DNA from: a virus
Reading direction: 5' to 3' (one strand)
Length of the DNA stretch: 64,000 bases
IMG/VR virus record: IMGVR_UViG_3300045119_000157
Coordinates: 19,579-83,578 of that record
Shown one piece after another: positions 50,637 through 54,995 of the stretch. Both the position numbers and the translations under genes were made by a program. The notes under the pieces were generated by a model. That model worked only from the letters and a program-made list of their open reading frames with translations, had not been told where the DNA came from and searched no databases. Positions within the stretch are counted from its first letter, which is position 1. Every line of letters starts with the position of its first letter.

Positions 50637-51440
50637 GTGCCCGCCAAGAAACCGCCACGCTGGACTGAGTACGTTGACGTTGACGCGCTGATTCCTGACG
50701 AGCGAAACCCGAAGAACCACGCCGACAAGCTCCTTGACGAATCGCTTGCACGCTTCGGGTACACCGAACAGGTCATGATCGATGAACGCACCGGCAAACT
50801 CGTCGCCGGTCACGGCCGACGAGAACTGGTACTGCGAGCACGCGACACAGGCGCCGACCCTCCTGACGGAATCGTTGTGACAGCCGGGCGGTGGCGAGTC
50901 CCGGTGCAACGCGGCTGGGCGTCCGCCAACGACGACGAATCTCTCGCATACCTTGTGGCATCCAACCGGCTCGTTGAAACCGGAGGATGGGAACAATCGA
51001 TTGCATCGACCGTCCAACAGTTGAGCGACACCGCGCTCGGCCTCGTAGGCACCGGCTATACCGAAAGTGATCTCCAACTGCTACTGGCCGAAGCCGAGGC
51101 GATAACCGCAAACGAAGGCGACGATCCCGACGCTGGGGTACTGCTTGCAGCGTCAGATGTCACGCTGGGAGAACCGCAGCACACGGTCGAACGTGGCGAC
51201 GTGTGGAACGTGGGGAAGCATGTGCTCGTGTGTGCAGACGTTATGACTGAACATGCCCTGTGGGCACCACTGCTCGCAGAAGACGTGCTGTTCTGTCCCT
51301 ACCCCGGTCCATATGTCGCTCTCGCTGGACGCATCGATGAAGTCGTGCTGCTGCTAGTCCAACCTGACACGTATCTCGCAGGCCATGTCGTCGACAAGTT
51401 CGCAGCGGTCAACGGTGAAGACGAGGTGAACCGACGGTGA
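50637..51440 (+). CDS. ParB-like domain fused to a degenerate DNA methylase remnant
   Basis: The 267-residue protein has a ParB/Srx-type N-terminus: VDVDALIPDERNPKNHADK and LVAGHGRRELV (the GHGR motif). From about residue 180, GDVWNVGKHVLVCAD resembles the start of adenine/cytosine methylases (xxGDxxxLGxHxLxCGD), but the catalytic DPPY is replaced by CPYPGPY and the remaining MTase fold is missing. It opens the 7-deazaguanine cassette and may target or license modification. Codon use is visibly less GC-biased than in upstream genes. Confidence 0.6.
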   Translation: MPAKKPPRWTEYVDVDALIPDERNPKNHADKLLDESLARFGYTEQVMIDERTGKLVAGHGRRELVLRARDTGADPPDGIVVTAGRWRVPVQRGWASANDDESLAYLVASNRLVETGGWEQSIASTVQQLSDTALGLVGTGYTESDLQLLLAEAEAITANEGDDPDAGVLLAASDVTLGEPQHTVERGDVWNVGKHVLVCADVMTEHALWAPLLAEDVLFCPYPGPYVALAGRIDEVVLLLVQPDTYLAGHVVDKFAAVNGEDEVNRR

Positions 51441-52525
51441 CGGTGCTGCAAACGACCGGCACATGGGATCCCGCTGACCGGCACACGTATTTCTTGGCTG
51501 GCGACGGGCGTCCGTCACACACCGGCTACCCACACCAGTACGTGCTTCTTGCTGTCAATGAGCTATGCGACGGTTCGGGCAATGTGAAGGCGAAGCAACG
51601 CGACCGGGTTGAAACGCTGCTGGATAACGATGTGCGTGTCGTGATCGATTCCGGCGTGTTCTGGCTAACGAACGAACACAAACGCGCTCATAACATCACG
51701 ATGGATGCGGCCCTGTCCCTTGCCCCAACAGAGATCGACGGGTTCGACTGGCTGTGGTCGTCTTACCTTGCTGTGCACCGGCTGTGGGGCGACAAGGTGT
51801 GGGGATACATCGAACTCGACCAGGGCGGCGCCGACAACAAACGAAAGACGCGAGCCAAGCTGCACGACGAAGGCATTACACCGATGCCCGTCTACCACCC
51901 ACTCAATGACGGATGGGAGTACTTCGACGAACTCGCGTCAACGCACGACCGTCTTTGCTGCGGCAACATCGTTCAAGCCCCCGCCCCGTTGAGAATGCGT
52001 CTCATCCATACCATCTCGGAACGCCACCGCGCGTATCCTGACCTGTGGGTCCACTTTCTCGGCTTCACACCGAACCAGTGGATAAACGCCCTACCAGTGG
52101 ACTCTTGTGACTCGTCAACCTGGCTCGATTCAGTTCGCTGGGCGCCAGCGAAAGACTGGGTAATGAGCGCCGCTCTCGTGATGAAGCCCGTTGTGTCGCG
52201 AACTGTCACGGTGCGATGGACGTTCGACGGATGGCATCACTGGCCTGACGCACCATCGCACCGCGCGTATCTTGCCGACAGCCACCGCCACCTGTTCCAC
52301 GCCGCAGTGACCATCTCCGTCGCACATGACAACCGCGACGTTGAGTTCCACGATCTGCAAGACACCGCGAAGGCGTGCACGCCGCCAGGTCGCGACTGGA
52401 AGGACTGGTCATGCGAACGCATCGCTGAACACGTCGCCAGCCAGATCTCTCGTGAGGTCGACGGCCCCATTGCGGTGTCGATCGGTGAGGACGGCGAGTG
52501 TGACGCCACGGTGACCATCGGATGA
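51437..52525 (+). CDS. dpdA: DpdA-like DNA transglycosylase fused to a PTPS/QueD-like domain
   Basis: The 362-residue protein has TGT/DpdA features: VVIDSGVFWL with D71 in place of the TGT DSGGFQ, YIELDQGG with D128, ITPMPVYHP with H154, CGNIVQ, and VDSCDSSTWLDSVRW near 221-234. DpdA enzymes replace guanine in DNA with a 7-deazaguanine base. Residues of about 256-362 (DGWHHWP, DSHRHLFHAAVTISV, NRDVEFHDLQ, SCERIAEHVASQI) follow the PTPS/QueD order of metal His residues and strands. That fusion is unusual. GTG overlaps the previous stop. Confidence 0.72.
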   Translation: MTVLQTTGTWDPADRHTYFLAGDGRPSHTGYPHQYVLLAVNELCDGSGNVKAKQRDRVETLLDNDVRVVIDSGVFWLTNEHKRAHNITMDAALSLAPTEIDGFDWLWSSYLAVHRLWGDKVWGYIELDQGGADNKRKTRAKLHDEGITPMPVYHPLNDGWEYFDELASTHDRLCCGNIVQAPAPLRMRLIHTISERHRAYPDLWVHFLGFTPNQWINALPVDSCDSSTWLDSVRWAPAKDWVMSAALVMKPVVSRTVTVRWTFDGWHHWPDAPSHRAYLADSHRHLFHAAVTISVAHDNRDVEFHDLQDTAKACTPPGRDWKDWSCERIAEHVASQISREVDGPIAVSIGEDGECDATVTIG

Positions 52526-52953
52526 TCGCCGTGTCGGTATGCCACAACTTCGAGACGGCTCACCGGCTGTTCGGGCAGGGACCGGGCGGGAAGTGCTGGA
52601 ACCTTCACGGCCACTCGTTCCGCTGCGAAGTCGAAGTGACCGGCGAACCGGACGAACACGGGATGATCGTCGAGTACGGGGCGTTCAAGGCAGCCCTCCG
52701 CGGCTACGTGGACGACCGGCTCGACCACGGCGCCGTGCTTTCCACCGACGACCCGCTGTGTGCGCCTCTGCTGGACAGCGGCTGCAAAGTCCTACGACTG
52801 GCTCACGATCCCACTGTCGAAGCGTTAGCAGCGCACCTGGCGACCGTCGTGGACATCCAGATCCTCGGGACGCTGGCGAACGGCGAGCATTGCCGGGTGT
52901 CCCGCGTCCGGGTCGATGAGACGGCAACGAACTCGGCGACATGGACTCCCTGA
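52522..52953 (+). CDS. queD: 6-carboxytetrahydropterin synthase (QueD)
   Basis: The 143-residue protein has FETAHRL with H14, CWNLHGHSF with Cys25, H29 and H31, MIVEYGAFK, DDRLDHG with H69, and DPTVEALAAHL. These are the three zinc His residues, catalytic Cys and Asp-His pair of QueD/PTPS. QueD converts dihydroneopterin triphosphate to 6-carboxytetrahydropterin in 7-deazaguanine synthesis. It overlaps DpdA by 4 bases and QueE by 13. Confidence 0.88.
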   Translation: MIAVSVCHNFETAHRLFGQGPGGKCWNLHGHSFRCEVEVTGEPDEHGMIVEYGAFKAALRGYVDDRLDHGAVLSTDDPLCAPLLDSGCKVLRLAHDPTVEALAAHLATVVDIQILGTLANGEHCRVSRVRVDETATNSATWTP

Positions 52954-53636
52954 CCGTCTCGGAAGTGTTCGGTCCGACAATCCAAGGCGAAGGACCGTCC
53001 TGCGGTCGGTTGGCGGCGTTCGTGCGGCTCGGGCTGTGCAACCTCGATTGCTCGTGGTGCGACACGCCGTATACGTGGGACTGGACCGGCAAGAACGGCG
53101 AACCACAAGACCGAACAAGGCTCTACCGGGCAACACCCGAAGACCTAGCCGCTGAAGTGACAGCTATGCGTGTCCCGCTAGTCGTCGTGACCGGCGGCGA
53201 ACCGCTCGTCCAGAAGGCTGCGCTCGGCCGACTCGTTGACACTCTCCACGGCTTCCATCTCCGGGTTGAGATCGAAACGAACGGATCGCTGCTGTGCCCG
53301 CCTGAGTGGCCTGTCCGGTTGAACGTGTCACCCAAACTTCGTCACTCTGGTGTTGACCCGTCATACGCGGCGACCGCGATGACGCTGTACCGCGATGACC
53401 CGCGCGCCGTGTTCAAGTTCGTCGTGGACGACGTGCTGTCGTTCCCCGAACTTGACGACCTGATCGACAAGTACGCCGTCGCACCGGAACGCGTGTGGGT
53501 CATGCCCGAAGGCCGCACCGACGGAAAGATGACCGGCAAGCGCGTCACCCGCATCGCTGAGTCCGCGATCACGCGGCGCTACAACGTGTCAACACGACTC
53601 CACGTTCTGCTGTGGGGCGACGAGAGAGGACGCTGA
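52941..53636 (+). CDS. queE: 7-carboxy-7-deazaguanine synthase (QueE)
   Basis: The 231-residue protein has VFGPTIQGEGPSCGR, then GLCNLDCSWCDTPYTW with C33, C37 and C40 (CxxxCxxC, the radical-SAM [4Fe-4S] site), then VVVTGGEPLVQ and VEIETNGSL. This is a complete QueE set. The enzyme converts 6-carboxytetrahydropterin to 7-carboxy-7-deazaguanine (CDG). It is followed by the FolE fusion; no QueC, which would make preQ0 from CDG, is seen. Confidence 0.9.
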   Translation: MDSLTVSEVFGPTIQGEGPSCGRLAAFVRLGLCNLDCSWCDTPYTWDWTGKNGEPQDRTRLYRATPEDLAAEVTAMRVPLVVVTGGEPLVQKAALGRLVDTLHGFHLRVEIETNGSLLCPPEWPVRLNVSPKLRHSGVDPSYAATAMTLYRDDPRAVFKFVVDDVLSFPELDDLIDKYAVAPERVWVMPEGRTDGKMTGKRVTRIAESAITRRYNVSTRLHVLLWGDERGR

Positions 53637-53640
53637 CCGA

Positions 53641-54531
53641 GTGGACGTCGTAACCATCACCCTCGACGAAGTGGTCGCCGCGGCGACCAGCGTCGCCCAC
53701 AGACACAACGGCAGCATCCGAAGCGTGTACGGCGTGCCGCGGGGCGGACTGTTCCCTGCTGCTGTCGTCGCGGGACAACTCCGGGTTCCCCTCAGTGCAA
53801 CACCGGAACGCGGAACGCTGGTCGTGGACGACCTTGTCGACTCAGGCGCCACGCTGACTCCGTACACGCTTGATGCTGACCTGTACGTGGATGCCCTGTT
53901 CCGTAAGTCCACGTCGCCTTCCGGCATCGCTCCACACGCCGAACTGCGCGACGGCTGGCTTGTGTTCCCGTGGGAACACAACGACTCGGCCGGACCCGAA
54001 GACGCAGTGTTGCGGCTACTCAACTTCATCGGCGAAGACGCGACGCGTGAAGGGCTTGTCGACACACCGGGTCGTGTGTGTCGTTCACTCGCAGAGTTGA
54101 CAGGCGGCTACAACGATGACCCCGCGACCATCTTGTCCACCGTGTTCACCGAGCAACACGATCAGATGGTGGTTCTCGATGGCGTCGAGTTCACGTCGCT
54201 CTGCGAACACCACATGCTCCCGTTCGTAGGCACCGCTGTCGTGGGGTACGTGCCTCGCGGCAAGGTCGTCGGGCTGTCGAAACTGGCTCGCCTGGTGGAG
54301 TGCTACGCCCGCCGCCTACAGGTGCAGGAGAGGATGACAGAGCAGATCGCTCTCGCCCTGATGACACATCTCGAACCTGAAGGTGCGGGCGTTGTCATCC
54401 GTGCTCACCATTCCTGCATGGGCTGCCGTGGTGTCCGCAAGCCGTCCGCCCGCATGACGACCAGCGCCCTTCTCGGTATCATGCGCTACTCGCCCGACGC
54501 ACGGTCTGAGTTCCTCGCCTTCGCCCATTGA
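53641..54531 (+). CDS. folE: Phosphoribosyltransferase fused to GTP cyclohydrolase I (FolE)
   Basis: The 296-residue protein has an N-terminal phosphoribosyltransferase half: VYGVPRGGLFPAA near 29-41 and VVDDLVDSGATL near 61-72, the PRPP-binding loop. From about residue 119 it is FolE: NFIGEDATREGLVDTPGRV, TSLCEHHMLPF with zinc ligands C188 and H191, VGLSKLARLVE, and HHSCMGCRGV with C259. FolE makes dihydroneopterin triphosphate, the first step toward preQ0. The phosphoribosyltransferase role is unclear; it could salvage bases. The start follows QueE by 4 bases. Confidence 0.82.
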   Translation: MDVVTITLDEVVAAATSVAHRHNGSIRSVYGVPRGGLFPAAVVAGQLRVPLSATPERGTLVVDDLVDSGATLTPYTLDADLYVDALFRKSTSPSGIAPHAELRDGWLVFPWEHNDSAGPEDAVLRLLNFIGEDATREGLVDTPGRVCRSLAELTGGYNDDPATILSTVFTEQHDQMVVLDGVEFTSLCEHHMLPFVGTAVVGYVPRGKVVGLSKLARLVECYARRLQVQERMTEQIALALMTHLEPEGAGVVIRAHHSCMGCRGVRKPSARMTTSALLGIMRYSPDARSEFLAFAH

Positions 54532-54566
54532 CCGCTAGGTTGCACTGGGTGTACGGTGTGGGTATG
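54528..54566 (+). promoter_or_regulatory. P7: operator-bearing promoter, family 1
   Basis: TTGACC at 54528-54533 (the best -35 of the set, overlapping the FolE stop), 18-base spacer, TACGGT at 54552-54557, ATG at 54564. Operator TGCACTGGGTGTA at 54541-54553. Confidence 0.75.
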
Positions 54567-54995
54567 GCGAACACCGCAGCGGCGCTCTCACGCTGGCAGA
54601 ACAAGCCGCGTGCCTGCCGCGATGAAATCGCCAGCCTGATAGGTGAGCACAGCGTTCTGACTCCTGAAGTCAGCCGTGGCATGGTCGTCGCTGGCACAGC
54701 CGCAGAGGTTGCCGCTCAGTTCAGCGGCCCGGTCACGCTGGGTCCATCGAGCTTCACGGAACTGGACGATGTGGCCGACTCGTTCGCTTCGCTTGACGCT
54801 CCGATTCCCGCTGGTCACGTGCGTGTCAAGCTGTGGACGGTCGCCGCTGCTGGGCTGCCGGTACTCGCCAACGGCGACCATGACTTCTCATGGGAACGAG
54901 AGTGGGTCGTGGCCGGTGACTTCAACGGTGCCCCCGTGGTCGACGACGAGTTCGGTGATCCGGTCGTCGTCGTGCATCTCACAGCCCTGTTCTAG
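54564..54995 (+). CDS. Hypothetical protein, 143 aa, probably leaderless
   Basis: The protein starts MANTAAALSRWQNKPRACRDEIASL, with alternating helix and strand sequence and a final VDDEFGDPVVVVHLTALF. No SD precedes the ATG, which lies at the predicted +1 of P7. It is not QueC: the PP-loop SGGxDS motif is absent. Its codon use resembles the modification cassette, so it may be an accessory to that system. Confidence 0.6.
   Translation: MANTAAALSRWQNKPRACRDEIASLIGEHSVLTPEVSRGMVVAGTAAEVAAQFSGPVTLGPSSFTELDDVADSFASLDAPIPAGHVRVKLWTVAAAGLPVLANGDHDFSWEREWVVAGDFNGAPVVDDEFGDPVVVVHLTALF

What the first reader, a model, noticed from the sequence alone, without database searches (positions are those of the whole stretch)
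50637..54531. Compact 7-deazaguanine DNA-modification cassette with no visible QueC
ParB/decayed methylase, DpdA, QueD, QueE and FolE follow each other with overlaps or gaps of at most 4 bases. Known pathway: FolE, QueD and QueE give CDG, QueC gives preQ0, DpdA inserts the base in DNA. No PP-loop QueC gene is seen in the window. Either the host supplies QueC, it is outside the window, or the inserted base is CDG or a derivative. Genomic DNA may therefore be unusually modified and restriction-resistant. Codon use in 50.6-55.4 kb looks less GC-biased, hinting at transfer.
Basis: partly seen in the sequence, partly recalled or inferred. Interest (0 to 1): 0.85.

Follow-up and report, generated by a model that had tools for sequence, protein, structure and literature searches.

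The report
QueC-less DNA-guanine modification cassette, fused DpdA
A virus, probably of actinobacteria, carries a compact set of genes for swapping guanines in its DNA for a modified base; the usual last enzyme of the pathway is missing, and a small, overlooked, QueD-like protein (here fused to the base-swapping enzyme) sits in its place, so the DNA probably carries a rarer base than the common one.

Summary
The cassette is real. Five ORFs at 50637-54531, nearly all overlapping, encode a ParB-like protein, DpdA, QueD, QueE and a phosphoribosyltransferase-FolE fusion. QueC is absent from the window and from the whole 83.6-kb virus record. (1) The last ~110 residues of the DpdA ORF are a second, QueD-like tunnel-fold (T-fold) domain (phrog_17812, unannotated). 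In relatives it is a separate gene between dpdA and queD; here it replaces the C-terminal helix of DpdA. It keeps QueD's three zinc histidines and its base-anchoring Glu but lacks the CPH4-synthase catalytic residues. (2) The 'decayed methylase' tail of ParB is conserved in about 30 such cassettes, so it is not decay. The order ParB-DpdA-T-QueD-QueE-FolE recurs in actinobacterial prophages. In nine of those host genomes no full-length QueC was found, so host supply is unlikely there. Among 79 QueE-bearing virus records 50 have QueC, 10 the T-fold, none both. Best reading: the T-fold enzyme takes QueC's place and acts on CDG, probably decarboxylating it to 7-deazaguanine, which DpdA inserts. 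This may be the DpdL function of Cui et al. 2023 (paper not held; unverified). The base is undetermined. The DpdA-T fusion rests on one contig.

The parts
50637..51440 (+). ParB-like protein (267 aa): ParB/Srx N-terminal domain plus a conserved C-terminal domain resembling a methyltransferase without DPPY (FCPYPGPY ... VQPDTYLAGH). Proposed DNA-targeting or ATPase partner of DpdA.
   Evidence: phrog_620 1e-19, phrog_498 7e-25; C-terminal domain conserved in ~30 T-fold cassettes; ParB profile scores 199-330 bits in nearly all T-fold cassettes against at most 138 bits in QueC cassettes
51437..52183 (+). DpdA (TGT-like) domain of the fused ORF, with DSGVF, DQGG, PVYHPLNDG, GNIVQA and DSCDSSTW; lacks the C-terminal hairpin and helix of its relatives
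   Evidence: phrog_887; alignment of 28 homologues; model of relative L002 matches TGTs, probability 1.00
52184..52522 (+). QueD-like T-fold domain (phrog_17812) fused in frame to DpdA; invariant residues H17, H33, H35, F37, R50, E53, S75-C76-E77 and E101 kept; proposed CDG-processing enzyme in QueC's place
   Evidence: phrog_17812 2.3e-15; 113-sequence alignment; model pLDDT 94, best PDB match E. coli QueD, E 7e-7, probability 1.00; hhalign to QueD 94%, E 1e-7
52522..52953 (+). QueD (CPH4 synthase) with AHRL, KCWNLHGH and LDH motifs intact
   Evidence: PF01242 3.8e-24; phrog_2389
52941..53636 (+). QueE (CDG synthase, radical SAM), CNLDCSWC intact
   Evidence: phrog_2076 7.4e-53; TIGR03365 3.7e-28
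53641..53985 (+). Phosphoribosyltransferase domain (xanthine/guanine type, PRPP motif TLVVDDLVDSGAT), N-terminal part of the FolE ORF; possibly recycles the guanine released by DpdA
   Evidence: phrog_8995 1.1e-6; NF006613 xanthine PRT 1.3e-7
53986..54531 (+). FolE (GTP cyclohydrolase I), C-terminal part of the same ORF
   Evidence: PF01227 6.3e-67
54528..54995 (+). Unknown protein (155 aa) overlapping folE by 4 bases; perhaps in the same transcript, no evidence of a role
   Evidence: ORF list; no supported family match

Best explanation
This is a QueC-independent 7-deazaguanine DNA-modification cassette. FolE, QueD and QueE turn GTP into CDG (inferred from family). The QueD-like T-fold domain, with its zinc-site histidines and base-anchoring glutamate, then acts on CDG in QueC's place, most likely removing the carboxylate to give 7-deazaguanine. 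The DpdA domain exchanges guanine in DNA for the product. Because the two activities sit in one polypeptide here, the base may pass directly between them. The ParB-like protein probably targets or powers DpdA on DNA, as ParB-like DpdB does in bacterial dpd islands. The phosphoribosyltransferase fused to FolE probably salvages the guanine that DpdA releases. Shown here: gene order, domains, folds, residue conservation, absence of QueC, and T-fold/QueC exclusion. Inferred: the reaction, the inserted base, channelling, and the ParB and PRT roles.
For: QueC is absent from the record. Of 79 QueE-bearing virus records 50 have QueC, 10 the T-fold, 0 both (Fisher 1.4e-5). T-fold carriers: 0 of 22 actinophage-like records, 1 of 12 GenBank phages over the cut-off (a partial match, positions 133-201) and 2 of 50 further records (partial) match QueC. 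The order ParB-DpdA-T-QueD-QueE-FolE recurs in virus contigs and in prophages of Streptomyces, Kitasatospora, Amycolatopsis, Pseudonocardia and Haloactinopolyspora; nine of these host genomes have no full-length QueC. The T-fold co-occurs with a canonical QueD in these operons, so it does not replace QueD. Its fold is QueD with zinc histidines and anchoring Glu invariant in 113 sequences and QueD's Cys and Asp-His lost. T-fold cassettes use their own DpdA subfamily (365-476 bits against at most 66 in QueC cassettes) and ParB type. Substrate channelling has precedent in phage 9g (PMC6884629).
Against: No activity is shown, and a zinc T-fold does not prove decarboxylation. Several large T-fold phages keep glycosyltransferase genes, and Xanthomonas phage X1 also a deacetylase-like gene, beside the T-fold, which could mean that a C7 substituent is retained and elaborated. 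Exclusion with QueC is partly phylogenetic: only 6 independent pairs on supported branches, of which 2-3 differ in QueC, always in the opposite direction; sign test not significant. The known CDG-derived decarboxylation, in tubercidin biosynthesis, is assigned to a UbiD enzyme acting on the nucleotide (PMC6112128). The window's DpdA lacks the last helix that its relatives have, so it might be impaired.
Confidence: 0.55

Rival explanations
1. The base inserted is CDG itself (dCDG), and the T-fold domain is a CDG-binding chaperone or delivery module for DpdA rather than an enzyme.
For: Pathway genes stop at CDG; no QueC; CDG was proposed for the QueC-less phage Bipper (PMC6884629), whose cassette has no T-fold of this family.
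Against: Zinc histidines, Cys76, Arg50, Glu53 and Glu101 are invariant across 113 sequences, which looks like an active site rather than a mere binding site. Bipper has another small protein in the same slot.
Confidence: 0.2
2. The T-fold enzyme modifies the base differently (amidation, reduction, ester or other C7 chemistry), or acts on the base after its insertion in DNA, giving a handle for further modification in some phages.
For: Glycosyltransferase and deacetylase-like neighbours or fusions in several T-fold phages; fusion to DpdA would also suit an enzyme working on the freshly modified DNA.
Against: No such tailoring gene was recognised among the window's neighbouring genes tested; amidation would need an ATP-using activity that a ~110-residue T-fold lacks.
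Confidence: 0.15
3. Host or environment supplies QueC or preQ0, and the cassette makes ordinary dPreQ0 or dADG.
For: QueC is widespread in bacteria; one T-fold host (Bradyrhizobium) has a full QueC.
Against: Nine actinobacterial genomes carrying the cassette show only partial ~60-residue matches and no full-length QueC; T-fold and QueC never co-occur in the 79 QueE-bearing records; the DpdA subfamily differs.
Confidence: 0.07
4. The cassette is decaying: DpdA lost its C-terminus by deletion and the DpdA-T fusion is inactive, or the fusion is an assembly error in one metagenomic contig.
For: All other window-type DpdA homologues found have 52-83 further residues and a separate T-fold gene; no second fusion to DpdA was found; single contig, no reads available.
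Against: The reading frame is preserved through the junction; all invariant DpdA and T-fold residues are kept; in a relative's model the barrel strands end before the lost part, which is a low-confidence hairpin and one helix.
Confidence: 0.12

Closest known systems
Mycobacterium phage Bipper cassette (KU728633)
   Same: Same order ParB-like, DpdA, small protein, QueD, QueE, FolE; no QueC; published suggestion that CDG may be inserted (PMC6884629).
   Different: The small protein gp4 belongs to another family, with no detectable relation to the T-fold; its DpdA and ParB are of another subfamily; no DpdA fusion.
DpdL (predicted CDG decarboxylase) and dDG/dCDG phages, Cui et al. 2023, NAR gkad657 (from memory; not held)
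   Same: QueC-less synthesis of deazaguanines in phage DNA. The T-fold family occurs in Cellulophaga phage phiST and Acidovorax phage ACP17, which I believe were among the phages studied.
   Different: Could not check whether DpdL is the same family; fusion to DpdA and the actinophage cassette with its own ParB type are not recalled from it.
Rosebush/CAjan preQ0 cassettes
   Same: FolE, QueD, QueE and DpdA are present (PMC6884629).
   Different: They have QueC and insert dPreQ0; QueC-type records in this study have another DpdA subfamily and a shorter-matching ParB.
E. coli QueD / 6-pyruvoyl tetrahydropterin synthases
   Same: Fold (TM 0.80, probability 1.00), three zinc histidines, base-anchoring Glu.
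   Different: QueD's catalytic Cys and Asp-His are missing; new invariant R50, E53 and SCE motif; co-occurs with a true QueD.
Bacterial DpdB (ParB-like ATPase)
   Same: ParB-like partner encoded beside DpdA (PMC12839542).
   Different: No dpd or DndB family match in PADLOC; here it carries a methyltransferase-like tail; ATPase activity untested.
Tubercidin pathway (TubE PRT, TubF decarboxylase)
   Same: GTP cyclohydrolase, CPH4 synthase and radical SAM steps to CDG, with a phosphoribosyltransferase and a proposed decarboxylation (PMC6112128).
   Different: UbiD decarboxylase acting on the nucleotide; product is an antibiotic nucleoside, not DNA.

Membership tests
DpdA (DNA-guanine transglycosylase) | TGT-like TIM barrel | tested here: met
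   phrog_887 6.8e-14; native relative L002 modelled, Foldseek TGT probability 1.00. The window's own truncated form was not modelled.
DpdA (DNA-guanine transglycosylase) | Conserved DSGxF and second catalytic aspartate region (SxDSS) | tested here: met
   Both retained; invariant or nearly so in 28 homologues
DpdA (DNA-guanine transglycosylase) | Inserts a deazaguanine in DNA | not testable with these tools
   Needs LC-MS
DpdA (DNA-guanine transglycosylase) | C-terminal helix seen in this DpdA subfamily (not a defining feature of DpdA as a whole) | tested here: not met
   Absent; replaced by the T-fold domain
QueC-dependent preQ0 cassette (Rosebush type) | QueC present | tested here: not met
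   PF06508 absent in whole record
QueD / CPH4 synthase (applied to the fused domain) | T-fold with three zinc histidines and anchoring Glu | tested here: met
QueD / CPH4 synthase (applied to the fused domain) | Catalytic Cys before HGH and Asp-His pair | tested here: not met
   Absent in T-fold family alignments
DpdL (CDG decarboxylase, Cui 2023) | Sequence relation to published DpdL | not tested
   Paper not held; 'DpdL' not found in the library
DpdL (CDG decarboxylase, Cui 2023) | Decarboxylates CDG | not testable with these tools
   Needs enzyme assay
DpdB | ParB-like protein encoded beside DpdA | tested here: met
   phrog_620 match, adjacent gene
DpdB | Match to a dpd/DndB family model | tested here: inconclusive
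   PADLOC gives only a type II methyltransferase model; whether PADLOC holds a DpdB model was not checked

The most novel reading that the evidence does not exclude
A second route from CDG to a DNA base: an unannotated, widespread viral T-fold enzyme family replaces QueC, travels with its own DpdA and ParB types as an exchangeable module, and in this virus is fused to DpdA as a bifunctional make-and-insert enzyme.
Probability: 0.45. Interest if true: 0.75.

Novelty: new variant of a known kind. Interest (0 to 1): 0.6.

Why it matters
It gives QueC-less deazaguanine phages a concrete candidate enzyme at the missing step. It predicts which viruses carry CDG-derived bases rather than preQ0 (at least 583 stretches in virus contigs encode the family). 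It names cultivable actinobacterial strains whose prophages can be tested. A DpdA-T fusion would be a single-chain tool for writing a non-preQ0 deazaguanine into DNA. The conserved ParB tail and the phosphoribosyltransferase-FolE fusion add testable links to target choice and guanine recycling.

Tried and rejected
Part of the window's DNA (40001-64000) against phage records: no near match. PF16760 (CBM53) on the DpdA C-terminus: below the curated cut-off, superseded by the T-fold. 'Decayed methylase': rejected because the region is conserved. Further DpdA-T fusions: long ORFs in L032, L035 and L036 are out-of-frame overlaps, since DpdA lies in another frame there. A mixed DpdA plus T-fold alignment for modelling the whole fusion was misaligned, so the T-fold and a native DpdA were modelled apart. 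Bipper gp4 as a T-fold: no support by profile comparison. Literature: Cui 2023 and the 2024 review not held.
Full report
Observation. The window is bases 19579-83578 of an 83,578-bp linear virus record. QueC (PF06508) is absent from the whole record while the same search rings in 12 of 14 control genomes.

The DpdA ORF has two parts. Residues 1 to about 248 are TGT-like. Residues 253-360 match phrog_17812, a family without function. In the relative L002 the same domain is a separate gene directly after dpdA. Separate copies lie beside deazaguanine genes in phages X1, ACP17, RHph_I1_18, BUCT-ZZ01, phiST, Paride, Phosso and others. An AlphaFold model of the window's domain (pLDDT 94) matches E. 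coli QueD (4ntk, E 7e-7, probability 1.00, TM 0.80). Profile comparison with the cassette's own QueD family gives 94% and E 1e-7. Eleven positions are invariant in 113 sequences, and all are kept in the window: H17, L29, H33, H35, F37, R50, E53, S75, C76, E77, E101. They include the three histidines aligned with QueD's zinc ligands and the glutamate that anchors the base (roles of these residues from general knowledge of the T-fold family). QueD's catalytic Cys and Asp-His pair have no counterpart. So this is a QueD-fold protein that probably binds a guanine-like ring at a metal site but is not a CPH4 synthase.

Genomic logic. The T-fold takes QueC's place. Among 79 records found by their QueE, 50 have QueC, 10 have the T-fold, none both (Fisher 1.4e-5). 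Relatedness inflates that number: on a QueE tree the T-fold label changes at least 6 times on well-supported branches, but only 2-3 of 6 independent pairs are informative; all of these go in the expected direction and the sign test is not significant. Searching from the T-fold side, 0 of 22 actinophage-like records match QueC; 1 of 12 GenBank phage records and 2 of 50 further records pass the cut-off, each only with a partial match. T-fold and a true QueD occur together in these operons, so the T-fold is not a QueD substitute.

Conserved module. ParB-DpdA-T-QueD-QueE-FolE in this order recurs in many virus contigs and in prophages of Streptomyces, Kitasatospora, Amycolatopsis, Pseudonocardia and Haloactinopolyspora, some with two tandem dpdA genes. 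In nine of these actinobacterial genomes PF06508 gives only partial matches of about 60 residues inside frames of 538 residues or more, at best E 5.8e-5; I read these as other PP-loop proteins and conclude that no full-length QueC was found, so these hosts cannot obviously supply preQ0. T-fold cassettes use their own DpdA subfamily (365-476 bits against at most 66 bits in QueC cassettes) and a ParB with an extra conserved tail. ParB-like DpdB is reported as an ATPase needed for insertion in bacterial dpd systems (PMC12839542); a similar role here is inferred.

The fusion. All other DpdA homologues of this subfamily that were found have 52-83 residues after the point where the window's DpdA ends. 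In the model of the L002 enzyme these residues form a low-confidence hairpin and one long helix, after the barrel strands and catalytic segments. In the window they are gone and the T-fold follows in frame, beginning at its usual start. No second DpdA-T fusion was found. The fusion therefore rests on a single contig and could be natural or an assembly artefact. If natural, it argues that the T-fold enzyme works with DpdA.

Mechanism. GTP to CDG by FolE, QueD and QueE is inferred from family membership. The T-fold step is inferred: position in the pathway, QueC exclusion, a zinc and base-binding site, and fusion to DpdA. Decarboxylation to 7-deazaguanine is my first choice, also because Cui et al. 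2023 reported, as I recall, dDG and dCDG in phages and a predicted decarboxylase, DpdL; that paper is not in the library and was not checked. Against it, several large T-fold phages keep glycosyltransferases, and Xanthomonas phage X1 also a deacetylase-like protein, nearby, and in tubercidin synthesis the decarboxylation is assigned to a UbiD enzyme (PMC6112128). The phosphoribosyltransferase domain on FolE resembles xanthine/guanine PRTs and has an intact PRPP motif; recycling of the guanine released by DpdA is a reasonable guess. PRT-FolE-like proteins also occur in phages such as PaMx25, so that fusion is not new.

Comparison with the known. QueC-less phages were noted before: Bipper was flagged as a possible CDG phage (PMC6884629). 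Re-reading Bipper shows the same operon order, with gp4 in the T-fold slot; gp4 and relatives in L046, L063 and L100 form another small family without detectable relation to the T-fold. The finding is therefore a new variant of phage deazaguanine modification, not a new kind. What may be new: the phrog_17812 T-fold as QueC's replacement (unless it is DpdL), its linked DpdA and ParB types, and the fused DpdA.

Limits. No chemistry was measured; the inserted base is unknown. Virus records may be incomplete. The host of this virus is not known; actinobacteria are inferred from relatives and GC content.

Noticed in passing
L218:2047-2472 (Bipper gp4); L046:7166-7558; L063:5013-5405; L100:2747-3139: A second small family (HFHTAAV, ATNEDVA motifs) fills the slot between dpdA and queD in other QueC-less cassettes; no relation to the T-fold by profile comparison. 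It may be another CDG-processing or delivery protein. L100 combines it with the window-type DpdA.
   Followed up: partly
L003:3519-4166; L139:7431-8348: A PIG-L/LmbE-like protein (PHxDDExxGC motif, by eye) lies near the T-fold in Xanthomonas phage X1 and shares an ORF with the T-fold in a metagenomic virus; glycosyltransferases lie near the T-fold in X1, ACP17, Phosso and BUCT-ZZ01. Possible further modification of the base.
   Followed up: no
L006:6452-7333: Chryseobacterium phage MA9V-3 has the T-fold in one ORF with an HNH-nuclease-like N-terminal part (by eye), next to a small kinase-like gene and a DpdA-like gene.
   Followed up: no
L008:6303-8219: Faecalibacterium phage Roos has only ParB-like, T-fold and DpdA genes together, with no FolE, QueD or QueE recognised nearby, so CDG would have to come from the host.
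   Followed up: no
L010:7977-8354: Pseudomonas phage Paride and relatives (PA5oct group) carry the T-fold near QueE; Paride has no PF06508 match in its 287-kb genome. Their DNA may hold an unreported deazaguanine.
   Followed up: partly
L002:1-1319; L206-L208; L211: Two tandem, diverged dpdA genes precede the T-fold gene in L002 and in Streptomyces and Kitasatospora prophages; meaning unknown.
   Followed up: no
window 53641-53985: Xanthine/guanine-type phosphoribosyltransferase domain fused to FolE; also fused or adjacent in several related cassettes (L026, L039, L055, L061, L087, L104; L018 separate).
   Followed up: partly
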